A DNA stretch of 37,192 nucleotides, from assembly GCA_002839545.1 (NCBI GenBank), contig PGYG01000045.1:1-37192 (forward strand), written 5' to 3'. The notes beneath the pieces were generated by a model. It did no database searches. It worked only from the letters and a program-made list of their open reading frames with translations, and had not been told where the DNA came from. This DNA is from Candidatus Methanoperedentaceae archaeon HGW-Methanoperedenaceae-1. GTDB lineage: Archaea; Halobacteriota; Methanosarcinia; Methanosarcinales; Methanoperedenaceae. Below, one piece after another: positions 299 through 25,910 of the stretch; the first letter of the stretch is position 1; the number at the start of each line of letters is the position of its first letter. Position numbers and translations under genes: made by a program.

Positions 299-576
299 AC
301 CAATCCATTGTTATCCGCAGTTCTTAAAAGTCAAATATCTCTTTTGCTCTTTTCCAGTTTTTCTTCAGTATGGGTTTACTAACGCTTGTCTCACCGTTTG
401 ATGGTTCTCTCCATCAACTGTTATGTCACAAACTTTATTTGTCATCGCATGGTTCGGTCTTATATTAATAGTGGTGGAGATATATTTCAATCGAAATCTG
501 GAGCGAAAAAATAGCAAAAACAAGGCACAATAAACAGCATATTAAAGCAGGCGCAATTAAAAAAGGAGGACTAAAT

Positions 577-810
577 ATGTACCGTTTCCTTATCGTAATC
601 GAAAAAGCAAACAACAACTATTCGGCATATTCACCAGACTTACCCGGATGTGTTGCAACAGGCGCAACCCGTGAAGAGACTGAAAAAAACATGCACGAAG
701 CTATTGAAATGCACATAAACGGATTGCAGGAAGATAATTTACCCATTCCGGAATCAAAATCATTCGCAGAATATGTAGCCATTTCTGAAAAAAACCGTCA
801 GTTCCTTTAA
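577..810 (+). CDS. hicB: HicB-family antitoxin
   Basis: A 77-residue protein of the HicB fold. It begins with a strand (YRFLIVIEK), then the conserved YSPDLPGCVATG turn, then the helix EETEKNMHEAIEMHINGL ending in LPIPE. That order is characteristic of HicB antitoxins, which neutralise HicA mRNA interferases. A strong ribosome binding site (AAAGGAGG) sits just upstream of the ATG. No full HicA lies alongside; only a degenerate fragment overlaps its 3' end, so this antitoxin seems to have lost its partner or to act on a toxin elsewhere. Confidence 0.8.
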   Translation: MYRFLIVIEKANNNYSAYSPDLPGCVATGATREETEKNMHEAIEMHINGLQEDNLPIPESKSFAEYVAISEKNRQFL

Positions 811-947
811 AGCGCCGCAAACTGCTTCATAAAATACAGACTGATACAAACTCTGCCTTTATGCGTGATTGTGAAGAAGAGCTGCATTCAACTCTCGAAG
901 ATTGGATTCTGGTGGGTATGAATTTGGGTCATCCTTTGAAAATTTAG
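789..947 (+). pseudogene. Chimeric hicA/hicB remnant
   Basis: A 52-codon open frame overlaps the end of hicB in another phase. Its start (VPLKRRKLLHKIQ) resembles the N-terminus of HicA toxins. After a short unrelated stretch, its end (CEEELHSTLEDWILVG then MNLGHP) resembles the C-terminal half of a second type of HicB antitoxin. There is no start codon at the head of the frame; the first ATG is at 861. The simplest reading is a deletion that joined the head of a hicA to the tail of a different hicB. The family resemblance is from memory of the families and is not certain. Confidence 0.4.
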
Positions 948-949
948 CC

Positions 950-1065
950 GCAGATGAACGCAGATAAACGCAGATTTACCGAGACGGGGAACACGGATGA
1001 CACGGATCAAACGGATTTTCACTGATCCGTGCGCATCTGTGTCATCCGTGCCATCCGTGTCCTAT
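950..1065. repeat. Inverted-repeat element built from short CGCAGAT / CACGGAT units
   Basis: Three direct units of about 10 nt beginning CGCAGAT are followed by two ACACGGAT units and an AACGGAT unit. After a short spacer the inverted forms follow (TGATCCGTG, TGTCATCCGTG, CATCCGTGTCC). The two halves can fold into a long imperfect hairpin. No coding potential was seen. A related but different hairpin lies at 24350-24412. Confidence 0.7.
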
Positions 1066-1103
1066 CGTCGGTTTTTCTCTTAACCGATGACGAAAGCACC
1101 ATT

Positions 1104-1571
1104 TTATGATATATTGGTTGGCACAAATGATAATTTATAATATTTTTCAAGTAATGATAAAACTTTTTTATTGGGTTTATTTGTACTATAACCACCTTGT
1201 TTTTTCCATGAGTCTGTTTCTTGAAAATCCATTGTTCCATTAAGCTTGTTTTTAAATTCATCATGAGGATAAAGATACCAATCTGGTTCAATTTCTTCAT
1301 CTTTTTTATGTGGGAAGCAAACCCATATGTCTTTCCCTAAATATTTTTTGGAAAATGTAAGACGAGATTTAAGTTGCACTTTTAAAAAAGTCTCACCATC
1401 TTTATGTGCTGCTATAAAATCTGCACCTTGCCAGTCATCTGATAATCGCAATGTGTTAAATCCATAATCAGCAAGTATAGAAGATACTTTTTGAAAATTA
1501 TAATTCTCTTTTTGTTTGGAATTAAGTTTATTGTAGGGAATTATTTTTTTCCACGCCATTTTAATATTCAT
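1104..1571 (-). CDS. Hypothetical protein, PD-(D/E)XK nuclease-like
   Basis: A 155-residue protein. Residues 23-75 carry a helix (NFQKVSSILADYGF), then LSDDWQGADFIA, then FLKVQLKSRL. This D..GADF...x-VQLKSR layout matches the catalytic core of PD-(D/E)XK-fold proteins: an acidic residue on one strand and a Q/E-x-K on the next, here Q-L-K. The C-terminus has WYLYPHDEF and SWKKQGGYS segments seen in uncharacterised bacterial and archaeal homologues. Q in place of the usual E may still be active, as some families use it. It stands alone and AT-rich between the repeat element and the ATPase gene, so transfer is likely. The in-frame ATG at 1559 is an alternative start. Confidence 0.6.
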   Translation of the reverse strand: MNIKMAWKKIIPYNKLNSKQKENYNFQKVSSILADYGFNTLRLSDDWQGADFIAAHKDGETFLKVQLKSRLTFSKKYLGKDIWVCFPHKKDEEIEPDWYLYPHDEFKNKLNGTMDFQETDSWKKQGGYSTNKPNKKVLSLLEKYYKLSFVPTNIS

Positions 1572-1701
1572 AGTTCAGCCCTTCGACCAACATATATTTG
1601 ATATTCTTTTATATTAATTTAATGTTCTTAATTTTCTCATGTAAACATAGCATTGACATTTATTGATGGGACTATTCAATGTGGTACGGAGAAAACTTCA
1701 A

Positions 1702-3108
1702 TCATTTCTGCATCTGAAACAGAAAAGGAGAGAAATCCCTGAGATCAAAAGCAAGATAACCCCTATCCCTCAATTTTTCTTTGTCCTCAATCTCCTTTGC
1801 GATAATGCCATATCTTTCCTTTCGCCGGGTATTATGCCATTTCACCAGCGCAGCTTTGCGTTTTAATTCAGCCAATATTATCTCCGCCTTTTTAACATCC
1901 AACAAACTCCACTTACATTCAAAAAAGTAAATCTCCTTATTCTCCCTGTTCAAAGCAATTATGTCTATCTCCTCAGTTTTATGCCACCATCTGCCAACAT
2001 CCATAAATTCAAAAGGAAGCATTCCTTTCCGGTTCATTTCTACCAGAAATTCGACTGCCTGTTTTTCAAATGCCCTCCCGAAATAAGAATTAATATCTTT
2101 CATAATCAATTCAAAAGCCCTTTCAGGATTAATTTCCAGCAAGCGTGAATTCCTGTAGATAAACCTGAACCAGAAATTAAAAAAATTATCCGTAATGAAA
2201 TACCTGGTGTCCCTGGCGCGGCTCATTATCACAGGTTTTTCTCCTATCACTATCTCGTAATTATTTACAAGTTCGTGAAGGTATTTTGATACCGCGCCAG
2301 ACTTCAAACCTGTATAATCCGAAATCTCCTTCGGGGTTGCATTCCCTGATGAAATTGCTTCAAGTATCGAAAAATAGCTCCTGTGCTCGGAGCCAAACTC
2401 AAGTGTAAGAATATTTTTCCCTTCTTCTGCCAGTATCCTGGTATCTATAAATAATTTTTTAAACGTCTCCACCGGGTCATCAGTTCCCATCTGTCCGGTA
2501 AGAAGAAGGTATTTAGGAACACCGCCGAAAATAAAATAGAACTTTGAAGCATCCTCTGTTTCCAGATCAAAAAAAACTTTCAGGAACGTAAAACTATCAA
2601 AAAAGTTAAATGGTTTAATATTAAAAAGCATCGTAGCTCTTCCAAACAGCGGTTCTTTAGTATCTTTGAATATTTTCTTTATCATCCCGACATACGAACC
2701 TATTATCAGGAACATATGCTGCGATACAGTATGATTTAAGTCCCAGTATTTCTGGAATTTTGAAAATATGCCGGGATTGACTTTACTAAGGTTCTGGAAT
2801 TCATCGAACACAACAACCAATTTCTCTTTATGCCCAAAAATCAGATTGAAGAGATCATCCCAATTATCAATCCGCGGTTTTATTTTGAATATCTCTCCAA
2901 ACGACTCTTCTATATCTTTCAAAACCAGCGCTTCAGGTTTGATTTCTATAAAAATATAAACCGCTTTCTTTCCTTTTATGAATTCGCGGCTCAATTCAGT
3001 TTTTCCCACCCTGCGGCGTCCGTAGATTACGACGAGTGATGATGATTTCGAATTGTAGATATCCTCTAATATGTGAATTTCATTCTTCCGGTTTATGAAG
3101 CCTACCAT
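1702..3108 (-). CDS. Archaeal ATPase with DUF234-type C-terminus
   Basis: A 468-residue P-loop protein of the archaeal ATPase family. Walker A is GRRRVGKT (residues 30-37) and Walker B is VVVFDEFQ (about 97-104). A winged-helix region follows (ATPKEISDYTGLKSGAVSKYLHELVN, in two pieces around residues 250-280). The C-terminal DUF234-type domain contains GRAFEKQAVEFL and ends with a nuclease-like strand pair (EIDIIALN, IYFFECKW). The D...E-C-K pattern suggests a PD-(D/E)XK fold. These proteins are widespread in archaea and their biological role is unclear. A perfect palindrome lies only six bases upstream of the start codon. The gene is monocistronic and complete. Confidence 0.8.
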   Translation of the reverse strand: MVGFINRKNEIHILEDIYNSKSSSLVVIYGRRRVGKTELSREFIKGKKAVYIFIEIKPEALVLKDIEESFGEIFKIKPRIDNWDDLFNLIFGHKEKLVVVFDEFQNLSKVNPGIFSKFQKYWDLNHTVSQHMFLIIGSYVGMIKKIFKDTKEPLFGRATMLFNIKPFNFFDSFTFLKVFFDLETEDASKFYFIFGGVPKYLLLTGQMGTDDPVETFKKLFIDTRILAEEGKNILTLEFGSEHRSYFSILEAISSGNATPKEISDYTGLKSGAVSKYLHELVNNYEIVIGEKPVIMSRARDTRYFITDNFFNFWFRFIYRNSRLLEINPERAFELIMKDINSYFGRAFEKQAVEFLVEMNRKGMLPFEFMDVGRWWHKTEEIDIIALNRENKEIYFFECKWSLLDVKKAEIILAELKRKAALVKWHNTRRKERYGIIAKEIEDKEKLRDRGYLAFDLRDFSPFLFQMQK

Positions 3109-3114
3109 ATAGTA

Positions 3115-3132
3115 ACATACTGTCCAGTATGT
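3115..3132 (-). promoter_or_regulatory. Perfect 8-bp palindrome at the ATPase gene start (putative operator)
   Basis: ACATACTG-TC-CAGTATGT is an uninterrupted 8-bp inverted repeat with a 2-nt spacer. On the minus strand it lies between a TATA-like AAATTATATATAC and the ATG at 3108. With archaeal spacing the transcription start would fall at or inside the palindrome, so a bound repressor would block initiation. The operator role is an inference. Confidence 0.5.
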
Positions 3133-3379
3133 ATATATAATTTATGACTTAAACAGACCTGGCAATGCAACAACATTCCTGAAACTGACAGGCATTATGG
3201 GGCTATTCGCTGAAGCCTGGTCTTGAGTGGCAATATTCTGGCACCGATAATAGGTCGTGTTATAACTGCTGATAAGTGACACATGGCTTATCTATCAGAG
3301 AATATTGACAGCCCCGGATACAAAAACAAATGACAACGATAGTCTTATGAAGAATAGAAACAAAAAAGGGACGTTACAC

Positions 3380-3424
3380 GGGCTCGTGGTCTAGCTGGTT
3401 ATGGTTCGAATCTCCGCGGGCCCA
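3380..3424 (+). pseudogene. tRNA-like remnant lacking the anticodon arm
   Basis: GGGCTCG at 3380-3386 pairs over 7 bp with CGGGCCC at 3417-3423 (one G-T wobble), and A3424 fits as discriminator base. Between them are a D-arm sequence (TGGTCTAGCTGGTTATG) and a T-loop (GTTCGAATC). The anticodon arm, the variable loop and the 5' half of the T stem are absent, so the element is 45 nt, about 29 nt short of a normal tRNA. The ends resemble archaeal tRNA-Val or a similar species; the identity cannot be decided without an anticodon. The surrounding 3133-3489 has no other gene I can support. A 23-codon open stretch ending at 3226 could be the tail of a lost membrane-protein gene. Confidence 0.65.
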
Positions 3425-3489: not shown

Positions 3490-4140
3490 ATGCAGTTTGA
3501 CATAACTTCCATATATACACTGGTCGGGCAGGCAGTAATTTACATCCTTGTATTCTTATTAATAGCAGCAGTTTTTGCCTCATTACTGATTGCCTACTCC
3601 TTCAAGACCGAACGGTTCATCTTCCCGAATTTCATGCTCTTTAATATCACCCTGCTTGAAACCCTCCTCAAGGCATTGTTCCGCTTTGTCAGGATGGATG
3701 ATGACATTGTGGACGAGGTTGGAATCCAGCTCAAGAATAAGATTTCCCTCAAGAAATTCAGGAACACGCCGCAGGACAGGAGAATAATCTTCCTTCCCCA
3801 GTGCCTGAGGGGTGTTGAATGCCCGTCAAAATTAAGTTCAGAAGGCATGCAGTGTATTAACTGCGGAAACTGTGAAATCGGGAAAGCAAAGAAATGCGCC
3901 GAGGAAAAAGGCTACAGGGTTTATATAGTACCGGGTTCGAGTTTTATAATCCGGCTTGTCAGGAAACACAAGCCTGTTGCGATACTTGGTGTCGGATGTA
4001 TGGCAGAAATAAAAGCAGGACTTGAAATGTGCGAAAAACTCAACCTTTACGGTGTCGGCATGACACTTGATAAAGCTGGCTGCGTTTCCACAGTACTGGA
4101 CTGGGATAATTTCTATGAATTCATAGGAAAGGATAACTAA
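3490..4140 (+). CDS. DUF116 domain protein
   Basis: A 216-residue protein with an N-terminal membrane segment (about residues 10-33) and a cysteine-rich cytosolic part. The cysteines occur in CLRGVECPSKL, CINCGNCEIGKAKKC and later GVGCMAEIKAG, a layout typical of DUF116 proteins from methanogens and clostridia. A metal- or Fe-S-binding role is suggested by the cysteines but the function is unknown. It lies just upstream of mfnA on the same strand with a 40-nt gap. An AT-rich stretch with TATA-like sequence precedes it. Confidence 0.8.
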   Translation: MQFDITSIYTLVGQAVIYILVFLLIAAVFASLLIAYSFKTERFIFPNFMLFNITLLETLLKALFRFVRMDDDIVDEVGIQLKNKISLKKFRNTPQDRRIIFLPQCLRGVECPSKLSSEGMQCINCGNCEIGKAKKCAEEKGYRVYIVPGSSFIIRLVRKHKPVAILGVGCMAEIKAGLEMCEKLNLYGVGMTLDKAGCVSTVLDWDNFYEFIGKDN

Positions 4141-7017: not shown

Positions 7018-8252
<1,235 letters not shown>

Positions 8253-8271
8253 ATTAATCTTTATCGCCTTA

Positions 8272-8454
8272 TCATAAATATATTTCATCGTGGTGTGCAA
8301 AATCCAGGAATTCCACTTTATGCAGGTCTTCATTTAGTGTAAAAGTCAAAACAAATGGGTCAAAATGCACTCGCCTGATGGTCTTCATGCCGTATTTCAG
8401 CGGTTTGTAGTGATTTGGATTTTCGATAATTTCAAAAAGAAAAATATTGGTCAA
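8272..8454 (-). pseudogene. RelE/ParE-type toxin fragment, N-terminally truncated
   Basis: A 60-codon frame carries NPNHYKPLKYGMKTIRRVH, PFVLTFTL and a VEFLDFAHHDEIY ending. These are the central and C-terminal strands of RelE-type mRNA interferases (the substrate-contacting arginines and the FxxHHD-Y end). Full toxins have 80-90 residues; the N-terminal helices are missing here. Its first codons overlap the end of the putative antitoxin frame at 8432-8560, which suggests a deletion across the antitoxin-toxin boundary. Confidence 0.6.
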
Positions 8455-8560
8455 ATTCTTCGGCTGTTATGAATTCAATGCCCTGTTGTTTTTGAATTTT
8501 TTCTAATTTATTAAGATATTTCGGATTAATTTCTTGATGTATAAGTCCTGATTCTGCCAT
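8432..8560 (-). CDS. Short putative antitoxin paired with the RelE fragment
   Basis: A 42-residue frame, MAESGLIHQEINPKY followed by a lysine-rich helix (LNKLEKIQKQQG), ends AEEFDQYF. It sits directly upstream of and overlaps the RelE-like fragment, the place where an antitoxin is expected. The length is short for an antitoxin and I do not recognise the family, so it may itself be a remnant. Confidence 0.4.
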   Translation of the reverse strand: MAESGLIHQEINPKYLNKLEKIQKQQGIEFITAEEFDQYFSF

Positions 8561-8633
8561 TATATTTAATTTACATTAAGCAATATATAAAACATTATCG
8601 TCTTTATGCAGAACTAAGGATACTATCATCACG

Positions 8634-8897
<264 letters not shown>

Positions 8898-8960
8898 TAA
8901 AATAAAATCCTCGACACCCATCGAAGCATATATAAACTCACCTGACAAAACAAACATATC

Positions 8961-10234
8961 ATGCTCGACCAATCCATCCGTTCATGGAACCCGTGGTGGG
9001 TGCAAAAGATGCCTCCATCCCTCACAAAGATGCCTCCATCCCTCACAGGCATCAGAAGGGACATCACAGGGGACATAATCAAAAGCCTTGGCACTCCTCA
9101 CATAAAAGACATAATAGGGGTCAGGCGGTGCGGCAAGACCACAATTCTCTATCAGGTGGCAGAGCATCTGACCTCTCAGGGAGTGCGGGCAAAGGATATC
9201 ATCTTCCTGAACTTCGATGACCCATCGATAAACGCAGCCTCATTTCCCGAACTACAGAAAGAGATATTCAAAATAAACCCTGATATATCCCACATATTCC
9301 TTGATGAAATACAGCAAAAAACAGGATGGGAGCGGTGGGTAAGAACGCTTTACGATACAAACAAATTCCAGAGGATATTCCTGTCAGGCTCATCTGCAAG
9401 CCTGCTATCACAAGATATGGGAAGAGTGCTGACTGGCAGGCATATAACCTTTGGCGCCGCGCCGTTTTCCTTCAAGGAATATCTAATGAAAAAAGGATGG
9501 GAAGATTTCACCCCTGATTTTCTCGCTTATAATAAAGACAAACTCCTGCATTACTTAAACGGATATCTTGAATCCGGAGGCTTTCCTGAAACAATAACGA
9601 TATTATTGCAAGGGACATTTCCTCAAGATACGGCGCATCCTTTGAGATAACAGATAAAATATGCAGGTTCATGCTCACAAATCCGGGCGCGCTCTACTCA
9701 AGCAACAGCGTGGCACAGGCTGTCGGCACTGCGCCAGAGACCGCTGAAAAATATATCGGTTACCTGAAAGAATCCCTGCTGATTTATGAACTTCCTATTT
9801 TCTCTTTTAAATTGAAGACCCAGTTCAAGCAGAACAAAAAAACATACCCCGTGGATACAGGTGTCAGGAATGCCGTATGTTTGCGTTTCTCCCAGGACAC
9901 AGGAAGGCTCGCTGAGACTGTGGTTTTTCTTGAAATAAAACGGCGGAATTCTGAAGTTTACTACTGGAAGAGTCCTGATGGTTATGAAGTTGATTTTGTG
10001 GTAAAACAAGGGCAAAAGCCCACAGAGCTTATCCAGGTTTCATGGGATGTAAGTGATGAAGCCACGCAAATGCGCGAAGAACGTGCGCTTCAATGCGCTA
10101 TGGAAGAACTTGATGTAAATTCGGGAATTATTTTAACCGAGGACGAGGAAAGCAGTGTTGAAAAAAATGGAAAAGTCATAAAATACGTTCCTATATGGAA
10201 GTGGCTTCTCGTCTCATCCGAATACATGCCATGA
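8961..10234 (+). pseudogene. AAA-type ATPase (DUF4143 family), split by a deletion and frameshift
   Basis: The first part (to 9650) has the WNPWW start typical of the family, Walker A GVRRCGKT (residues 53-60), Walker B HIFLDEIQ, and GSSASLLS. It reaches SGGFPET and then shifts to TILLQG and a stop. The second part continues in a different frame from about 9610: DIIARDISSRYGASFEITDK, RFMLTN, a winged-helix region, VDTGVRNAVCLRFS, and the C-terminal nuclease-like strands (VVFLEIKRR, YEVDFVV). A stretch of family sequence between GGFPE and DIIARDI is missing, so there was a deletion and not only an indel. A 21-nt tandem duplication lies near the start. Confidence 0.85.
9005..9046 (+). repeat. 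21-nt tandem duplication inside the broken ATPase gene
   Basis: Two perfect, adjacent 21-nt units (9005-9025 and 9026-9046) encode the repeated heptad KMPPSLT-KMPPSLT. The unit is a multiple of three and leaves the frame intact. It lies between the WNPWW motif and the P-loop domain. Confidence 0.9.
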
Positions 10235-25906: not shown

Positions 25907-25910
25907 AAAA

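What the first reader, a model, noticed from the sequence alone, without database searches (positions are those of the whole stretch)
3380..3424. tRNA with D and T sequences but no anticodon arm
A 7-bp acceptor stem, a D-arm and a T-loop flank a precise gap of about 29 nt. GGTT occurs on both sides of the junction (GGTTATGGTTCG), so microhomology may have driven the deletion. If it is transcribed, a minimal tRNA-like RNA would be novel; decay is more likely.
Basis: partly seen in the sequence, partly recalled or inferred. Interest (0 to 1): 0.5.

Follow-up and report, generated by a model that had tools for sequence, protein, structure and literature searches.

The report
Valine tRNA gene missing its middle
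A valine tRNA gene in a metagenome-assembled archaeal genome has lost exactly its middle 29 letters, most likely an assembly error or otherwise a very recent deletion, and nothing suggests a new kind of RNA.

Summary
The 45 nt at 3380-3424 are a tRNA-Val(CAC) gene without its middle 29 nt. The only congener held (G001) has the intact 74-nt gene at the orthologous place, just upstream of the same DUF116 gene. The 45 retained bases match it 45/45, while the flanks match only 57/69 and 48/57. No other Val(CAC) gene was found in this MAG; Val(UAC) and Val(GAC) are intact elsewhere. The loss removes the anticodon arm, variable loop, two D-stem bases and nearly all of one T-stem strand, so it is not a cloverleaf minus one arm. 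Assembly loss is the most likely cause: the MAG is scaffolded with N gaps; its only enolase, 4.7 kb away, has a similar N-free 22-nt frameshifting loss; and every other shortened tRNA-Val gene found in wide searches carries the letters NN inside it. A very recent real deletion cannot be excluded without reads. A functional mini-tRNA is unlikely.

The parts
3380..3403 (+). 5' part of tRNA-Val(CAC): acceptor 5' strand, D-stem 5' strand, D-loop, up to position 23
   Evidence: identical to L247:926-949 of congener G001
3403..3404 (+). join where 29 nt (positions 24-52, anticodon arm included) are missing; no microhomology, no N
3404..3424 (+). 3' part of tRNA-Val(CAC): G53, T-loop, T-stem 3' strand, acceptor 3' strand, A73
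   Evidence: identical to L247:979-999
3335..3353 (+). conserved promoter-like block (ACAACGATAGTCTTATGA), about 27-45 nt upstream of the tRNA
   Evidence: aligned with congener and with other tRNA upstream regions of this MAG; TATA/BRE reading is inference
856..3310 (.). 2.4-kb stretch absent from the congener (which has about 65 bp there), holding an ATPase_2/DUF234 gene (1702-3108, -); ends 69 nt upstream of the tRNA
3490..4140 (+). DUF116 gene that anchors the orthologous locus
7018..8252 (+). only enolase gene of the MAG, with an N-free 22-nt frameshifting loss at 8150/8151

Best explanation
The locus is the ordinary single tRNA-Val(CAC) gene of an archaeon of the Methanoperedens family, and the missing 29 bp were most probably lost in assembly, not in the cell. 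Shown: the gene is intact in the congener, the remaining bases are pristine, the assembly is a scaffolded metagenome product, and a comparable N-free loss breaks the only enolase gene on the same contig. Inferred: tRNA-Val genes share short exact words with each other and whole genes with other archaea, so the assembly graph broke inside the gene, and the two contig ends were abutted or gap-closed without the bases between. If that is so, the living organism has a normal tRNA-Val(CAC).
For: Retained 45/45 identical to the congener, while flanks differ at 12 of 69 and 9 of 57 aligned bases; a neutral pseudogene as old as the species split would show no change with probability about 0.014 by flanks or 0.00025 by 4-fold sites (simple model). 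The MAG is scaffolded: 9 N runs in 293,805 sampled bases, and 2 of 30 tRNA-centred loci have an N run within 100 nt of the tRNA; contig C111 starts inside a tRNA gene. The only enolase has a 22-nt N-free frameshifting loss while the rest of its reading frame continues undamaged. Shortened tRNA-Val genes were sought in 237 genomes of the class and 392 of the phylum (546 different genomes by handle): besides this one there were three places in two genomes, all with NN inside the gene; UBA471 gave a further NN case. The intact 74-nt gene is letter-identical in the congener, in G038 of another family and in a Methanospirillum MAG, so it is an exact cross-species repeat. Zero microhomology.
Against: The join here carries no N, unlike the other shortened genes. 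I saw no reads. Within this MAG the exact words shared with the other two Val genes are short (17 and 13 nt around the two ends of the loss), less than usual k-mer sizes. The enolase break lies beside enolase 3'-end duplications, so it could be a biological scar and is not proof of artefact. Another family member, G013 (99% complete), also showed no Val(CAC) in either pattern, so true loss may be tolerated.
Confidence: 0.6

Rival explanations
1. A real and very recent 29-bp deletion inactivated the only tRNA-Val(CAC) gene of this strain. GUG is then read by tRNA-Val(UAC) by wobble, and the remnant is a non-functional pseudogene that may still be transcribed.
For: The join is N-free and clean. 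Val(UAC) and Val(GAC) genes are intact in the MAG. The locus has been rearranged in this lineage, with a 2.4-kb insert ending 69 nt upstream. GTG stays in use (19 of 70 Val codons in three genes), which a UAC anticodon could serve. G013 also lacks a detected Val(CAC) gene.
Against: No substitution in the remaining 45 nt and a conserved promoter-like block require a very young event. Val(CAC) was found by a strict pattern in 130 of 150 high-quality genomes of the class. No microhomology at the join.
Confidence: 0.35
2. The 45-nt gene makes a stable small tRNA-like RNA with a job of its own, such as a decoy for synthetase, CCA-adding enzyme or RNase P.
For: The promoter-like block and acceptor stem are intact, and none of 200 shuffles of the 45-nt RNA folded as well (z -3.5).
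Against: The outer stem of that fold is also predicted in the intact gene, so it is inherited. T-stem and D-stem are broken. The form was found in no other of 546 genomes nor in viral contigs. No tRNA model matches it.
Confidence: 0.03
3. A split, permuted or intron-containing tRNA whose missing piece is encoded elsewhere.
For: Such genes exist in archaea (recalled).
Against: The missing stretch is nowhere in the MAG: a search with up to 3 mismatches found only the Val(GAC) gene. The two halves are joined directly, with no leader or intron boundary.
Confidence: 0.01

Closest known systems
tRNA-Val(CAC) gene of Methanosarcinia
   Same: locus, flanks, acceptor stem, D-loop and T-loop sequence as in the congener's intact gene
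   Different: 29 nt from position 24 to 52 absent
Assembly gaps inside tRNA-Val genes of other MAGs (Methanocellaceae UBA148 = G268, Methanoregula UBA471, and G165 of the same order)
   Same: tRNA-Val gene shortened in its middle
   Different: those carry NN at the join, this one carries none
tRNA pseudogenes and tRNA fragments left by integrated elements in archaea (recalled)
   Same: partial tRNA gene beside a lineage-specific insert
   Different: integration leaves an end fragment; here both ends remain and the middle is gone

Membership tests
functional tRNA gene (RF00005) | scores as tRNA by covariance model or ARAGORN | tested here: not met
functional tRNA gene (RF00005) | anticodon stem-loop | tested here: not met
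   29 nt containing it absent
functional tRNA gene (RF00005) | 7-bp acceptor stem | tested here: met
functional tRNA gene (RF00005) | D-stem and T-stem | tested here: not met
   two D-stem bases and four of five T-stem 5' bases missing against the congener
tRNA pseudogene (real deletion) | orthologous intact gene in relatives | tested here: met
   G001 at the same place
tRNA pseudogene (real deletion) | relaxed constraint: substitutions accumulate in the remnant | tested here: not met
   45/45 identical; may only mean that it is young
assembly artefact | absent from the reads of the source sample | not testable with these tools
   no reads available
assembly artefact | similar unexplained N-free losses elsewhere in the same assembly | tested here: inconclusive
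   22-nt frameshifting loss in the only enolase, but it lies beside enolase 3' duplications

The most novel reading that the evidence does not exclude
A living archaeon carries and transcribes a 45-nt tRNA-Val derivative without anticodon arm, kept for a role outside decoding, while tRNA-Val(UAC) alone reads GUG.
Probability: 0.02. Interest if true: 0.7.

Novelty: not a real feature. Interest (0 to 1): 0.1.

Why it matters
If it is an assembly loss, it warns that tRNA genes in scaffolded MAGs can be silently shortened, so that 'missing isoacceptor' claims need reads. If it is a real deletion, it is a young loss of tRNA-Val(CAC) that would test whether UAC alone suffices for GUG in these archaea.

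Tried and rejected
Chance resemblance: rejected (45/45 match to the congener). Split or permuted tRNA: rejected. Integration scar: both ends of the gene remain, and the insert boundary lies 69 nt upstream, not in the tRNA. Microhomology deletion: rejected. Promoter loss: first suspected because the insert ends at 3311, but the promoter-like block lies downstream of that boundary and is conserved. Codon usage: GTG is used normally in own and congener genes, so it does not discriminate. Viral contigs: no match. Paper searches on tRNA pseudogenes in archaea, missing anticodon arms, truncated tRNA genes and tRNA genes in MAG assemblies gave listings only and nothing that describes this case; in PMC8450103 I saw three short passages. 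A search for Ethanoperedens (listing only) did not identify the MAG; I did not establish its name.

Full report
What is there. The 45 nt at 3380-3424 read as a tRNA-Val gene without its middle. No tRNA caller or Rfam model accepts it. The genome is a 2.0-Mb MAG in 128 contigs, 91.6% complete, and the window is its contig C39. The family placement (Methanoperedens family) is my inference from named relatives and the gene content; no call names the organism.

The intact counterpart. DUF116, directly downstream, was used to find the locus in 60 genomes, this one included. The only congener, G001, has an intact tRNA-Val(CAC) at the orthologous place. Of the 30 loci checked with ARAGORN, 4 had a Val(CAC) gene near DUF116 (L032, L054, L055, L056); 26, this MAG's own locus included, had none there, so in most of the more distant relatives the gene lies elsewhere. 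The loss is exactly 29 nt with one possible placement: D-stem 3' bases 24-25, the whole anticodon arm, the variable loop and T-stem bases 49-52 (numbering recalled).

Is there another copy? The MAG has 44 tRNA matches above the Rfam cut-off. I read the anticodons: Val(UAC) and Val(GAC) are present, Val(CAC) is not. A search with the missing stretch and 3 mismatches found only the Val(GAC) gene. In the class, a strict Val(CAC) pattern matched 189 of 237 genomes, 130 of 150 at high quality. In the family it matched 28 of 34; of the six misses one (G029) has the gene by the looser pattern, and five have it by neither (G000, G002, G013, G024, G032). G013 is 99% complete, which counts against the idea that absence must be an artefact.

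State of the remnant. Retained bases match the congener 45/45; upstream flank 57/69, downstream 48/57 aligned bases, DUF116 590/651. The functional Val(UAC) and Val(GAC) genes differ between the two genomes at 1 and 2 positions (read by eye). So the remnant still looks like a gene under constraint. The promoter-like block about 27-45 nt upstream is conserved. A long-decaying pseudogene is excluded; an assembly loss, a very young deletion or selection on the short form remain.

Assembly evidence. The MAG has N gaps of 15-186 nt (9 runs in 293,805 sampled bases; the sample was of contigs chosen because they hold tRNA genes, plus the window, which has none). Two of 30 tRNA-centred loci have an N run within 100 nt of the tRNA. 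Contig C111 begins inside a tRNA gene. In other MAGs, shortened tRNA-Val genes carry NN: UBA148 (L136, the same genome as G268 by shared 31-mers), with two tRNA-Val genes and one further tRNA-like gene affected, UBA471 and G165. Across 237 class and 392 phylum genomes (546 by handle; the two patterns differ slightly) the only N-free shortened gene is the one in this window.

Enolase. On the same contig, the MAG's only enolase gene has a 22-nt N-free loss that shifts the frame, while the reading frame beyond it remains well conserved. This looks like the same kind of error. But the enolase 3' end is duplicated in both genomes, and in the congener an AAA_14/DUF4143 ATPase gene lies between the two copies, so a biological scar is possible. 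I count it as support, not proof. In the rest of the window aligned to the congener, the only other own-side losses of at least 10 nt were an indel of 14-19 nt (by aligner) in an enolase loop, which together with its neighbours is a 6-residue in-frame gap, and a 28-nt one at 25908; neither looked suspicious, though I did not study the 28-nt one.

Judgement. Assembly loss 0.6, real recent deletion 0.35, functional mini-RNA 0.03. The reads decide, and I could not see them.

Noticed in passing
window 7018-9650; L247:4582-7567: Duplicated enolase 3' ends: own fragment at about 8610-8780 followed by an AAA_14 ATPase ORF (8961-9650); in the congener an AAA_14/DUF4143 ATPase gene sits between enolase and a second enolase 3' end. 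This suggests that such ATPase elements insert at the enolase 3' end and carry a piece of it.
   Followed up: partly
window 856-3310: 2.4-kb lineage-specific stretch with an ATPase_2/DUF234 gene between a HicB-like antitoxin gene and the tRNA; the congener has about 65 bp there. It holds an imperfect inverted repeat at about 991-1060.
   Followed up: partly
window 520-855: HicB-like stretch is 95.5% identical to the congener, more than the 87% of the neighbouring 5 kb; the upstream part present in the congener is shortened here.
   Followed up: no
L136/L276 (UBA148 = G268): Two tRNA-Val genes and one further tRNA-like gene of one MAG are interrupted by NN, a recognisable signature of tRNA genes broken by assembly.
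   Followed up: partly
window 25908: 28-nt AT-rich stretch present in the congener is absent here.
   Followed up: no
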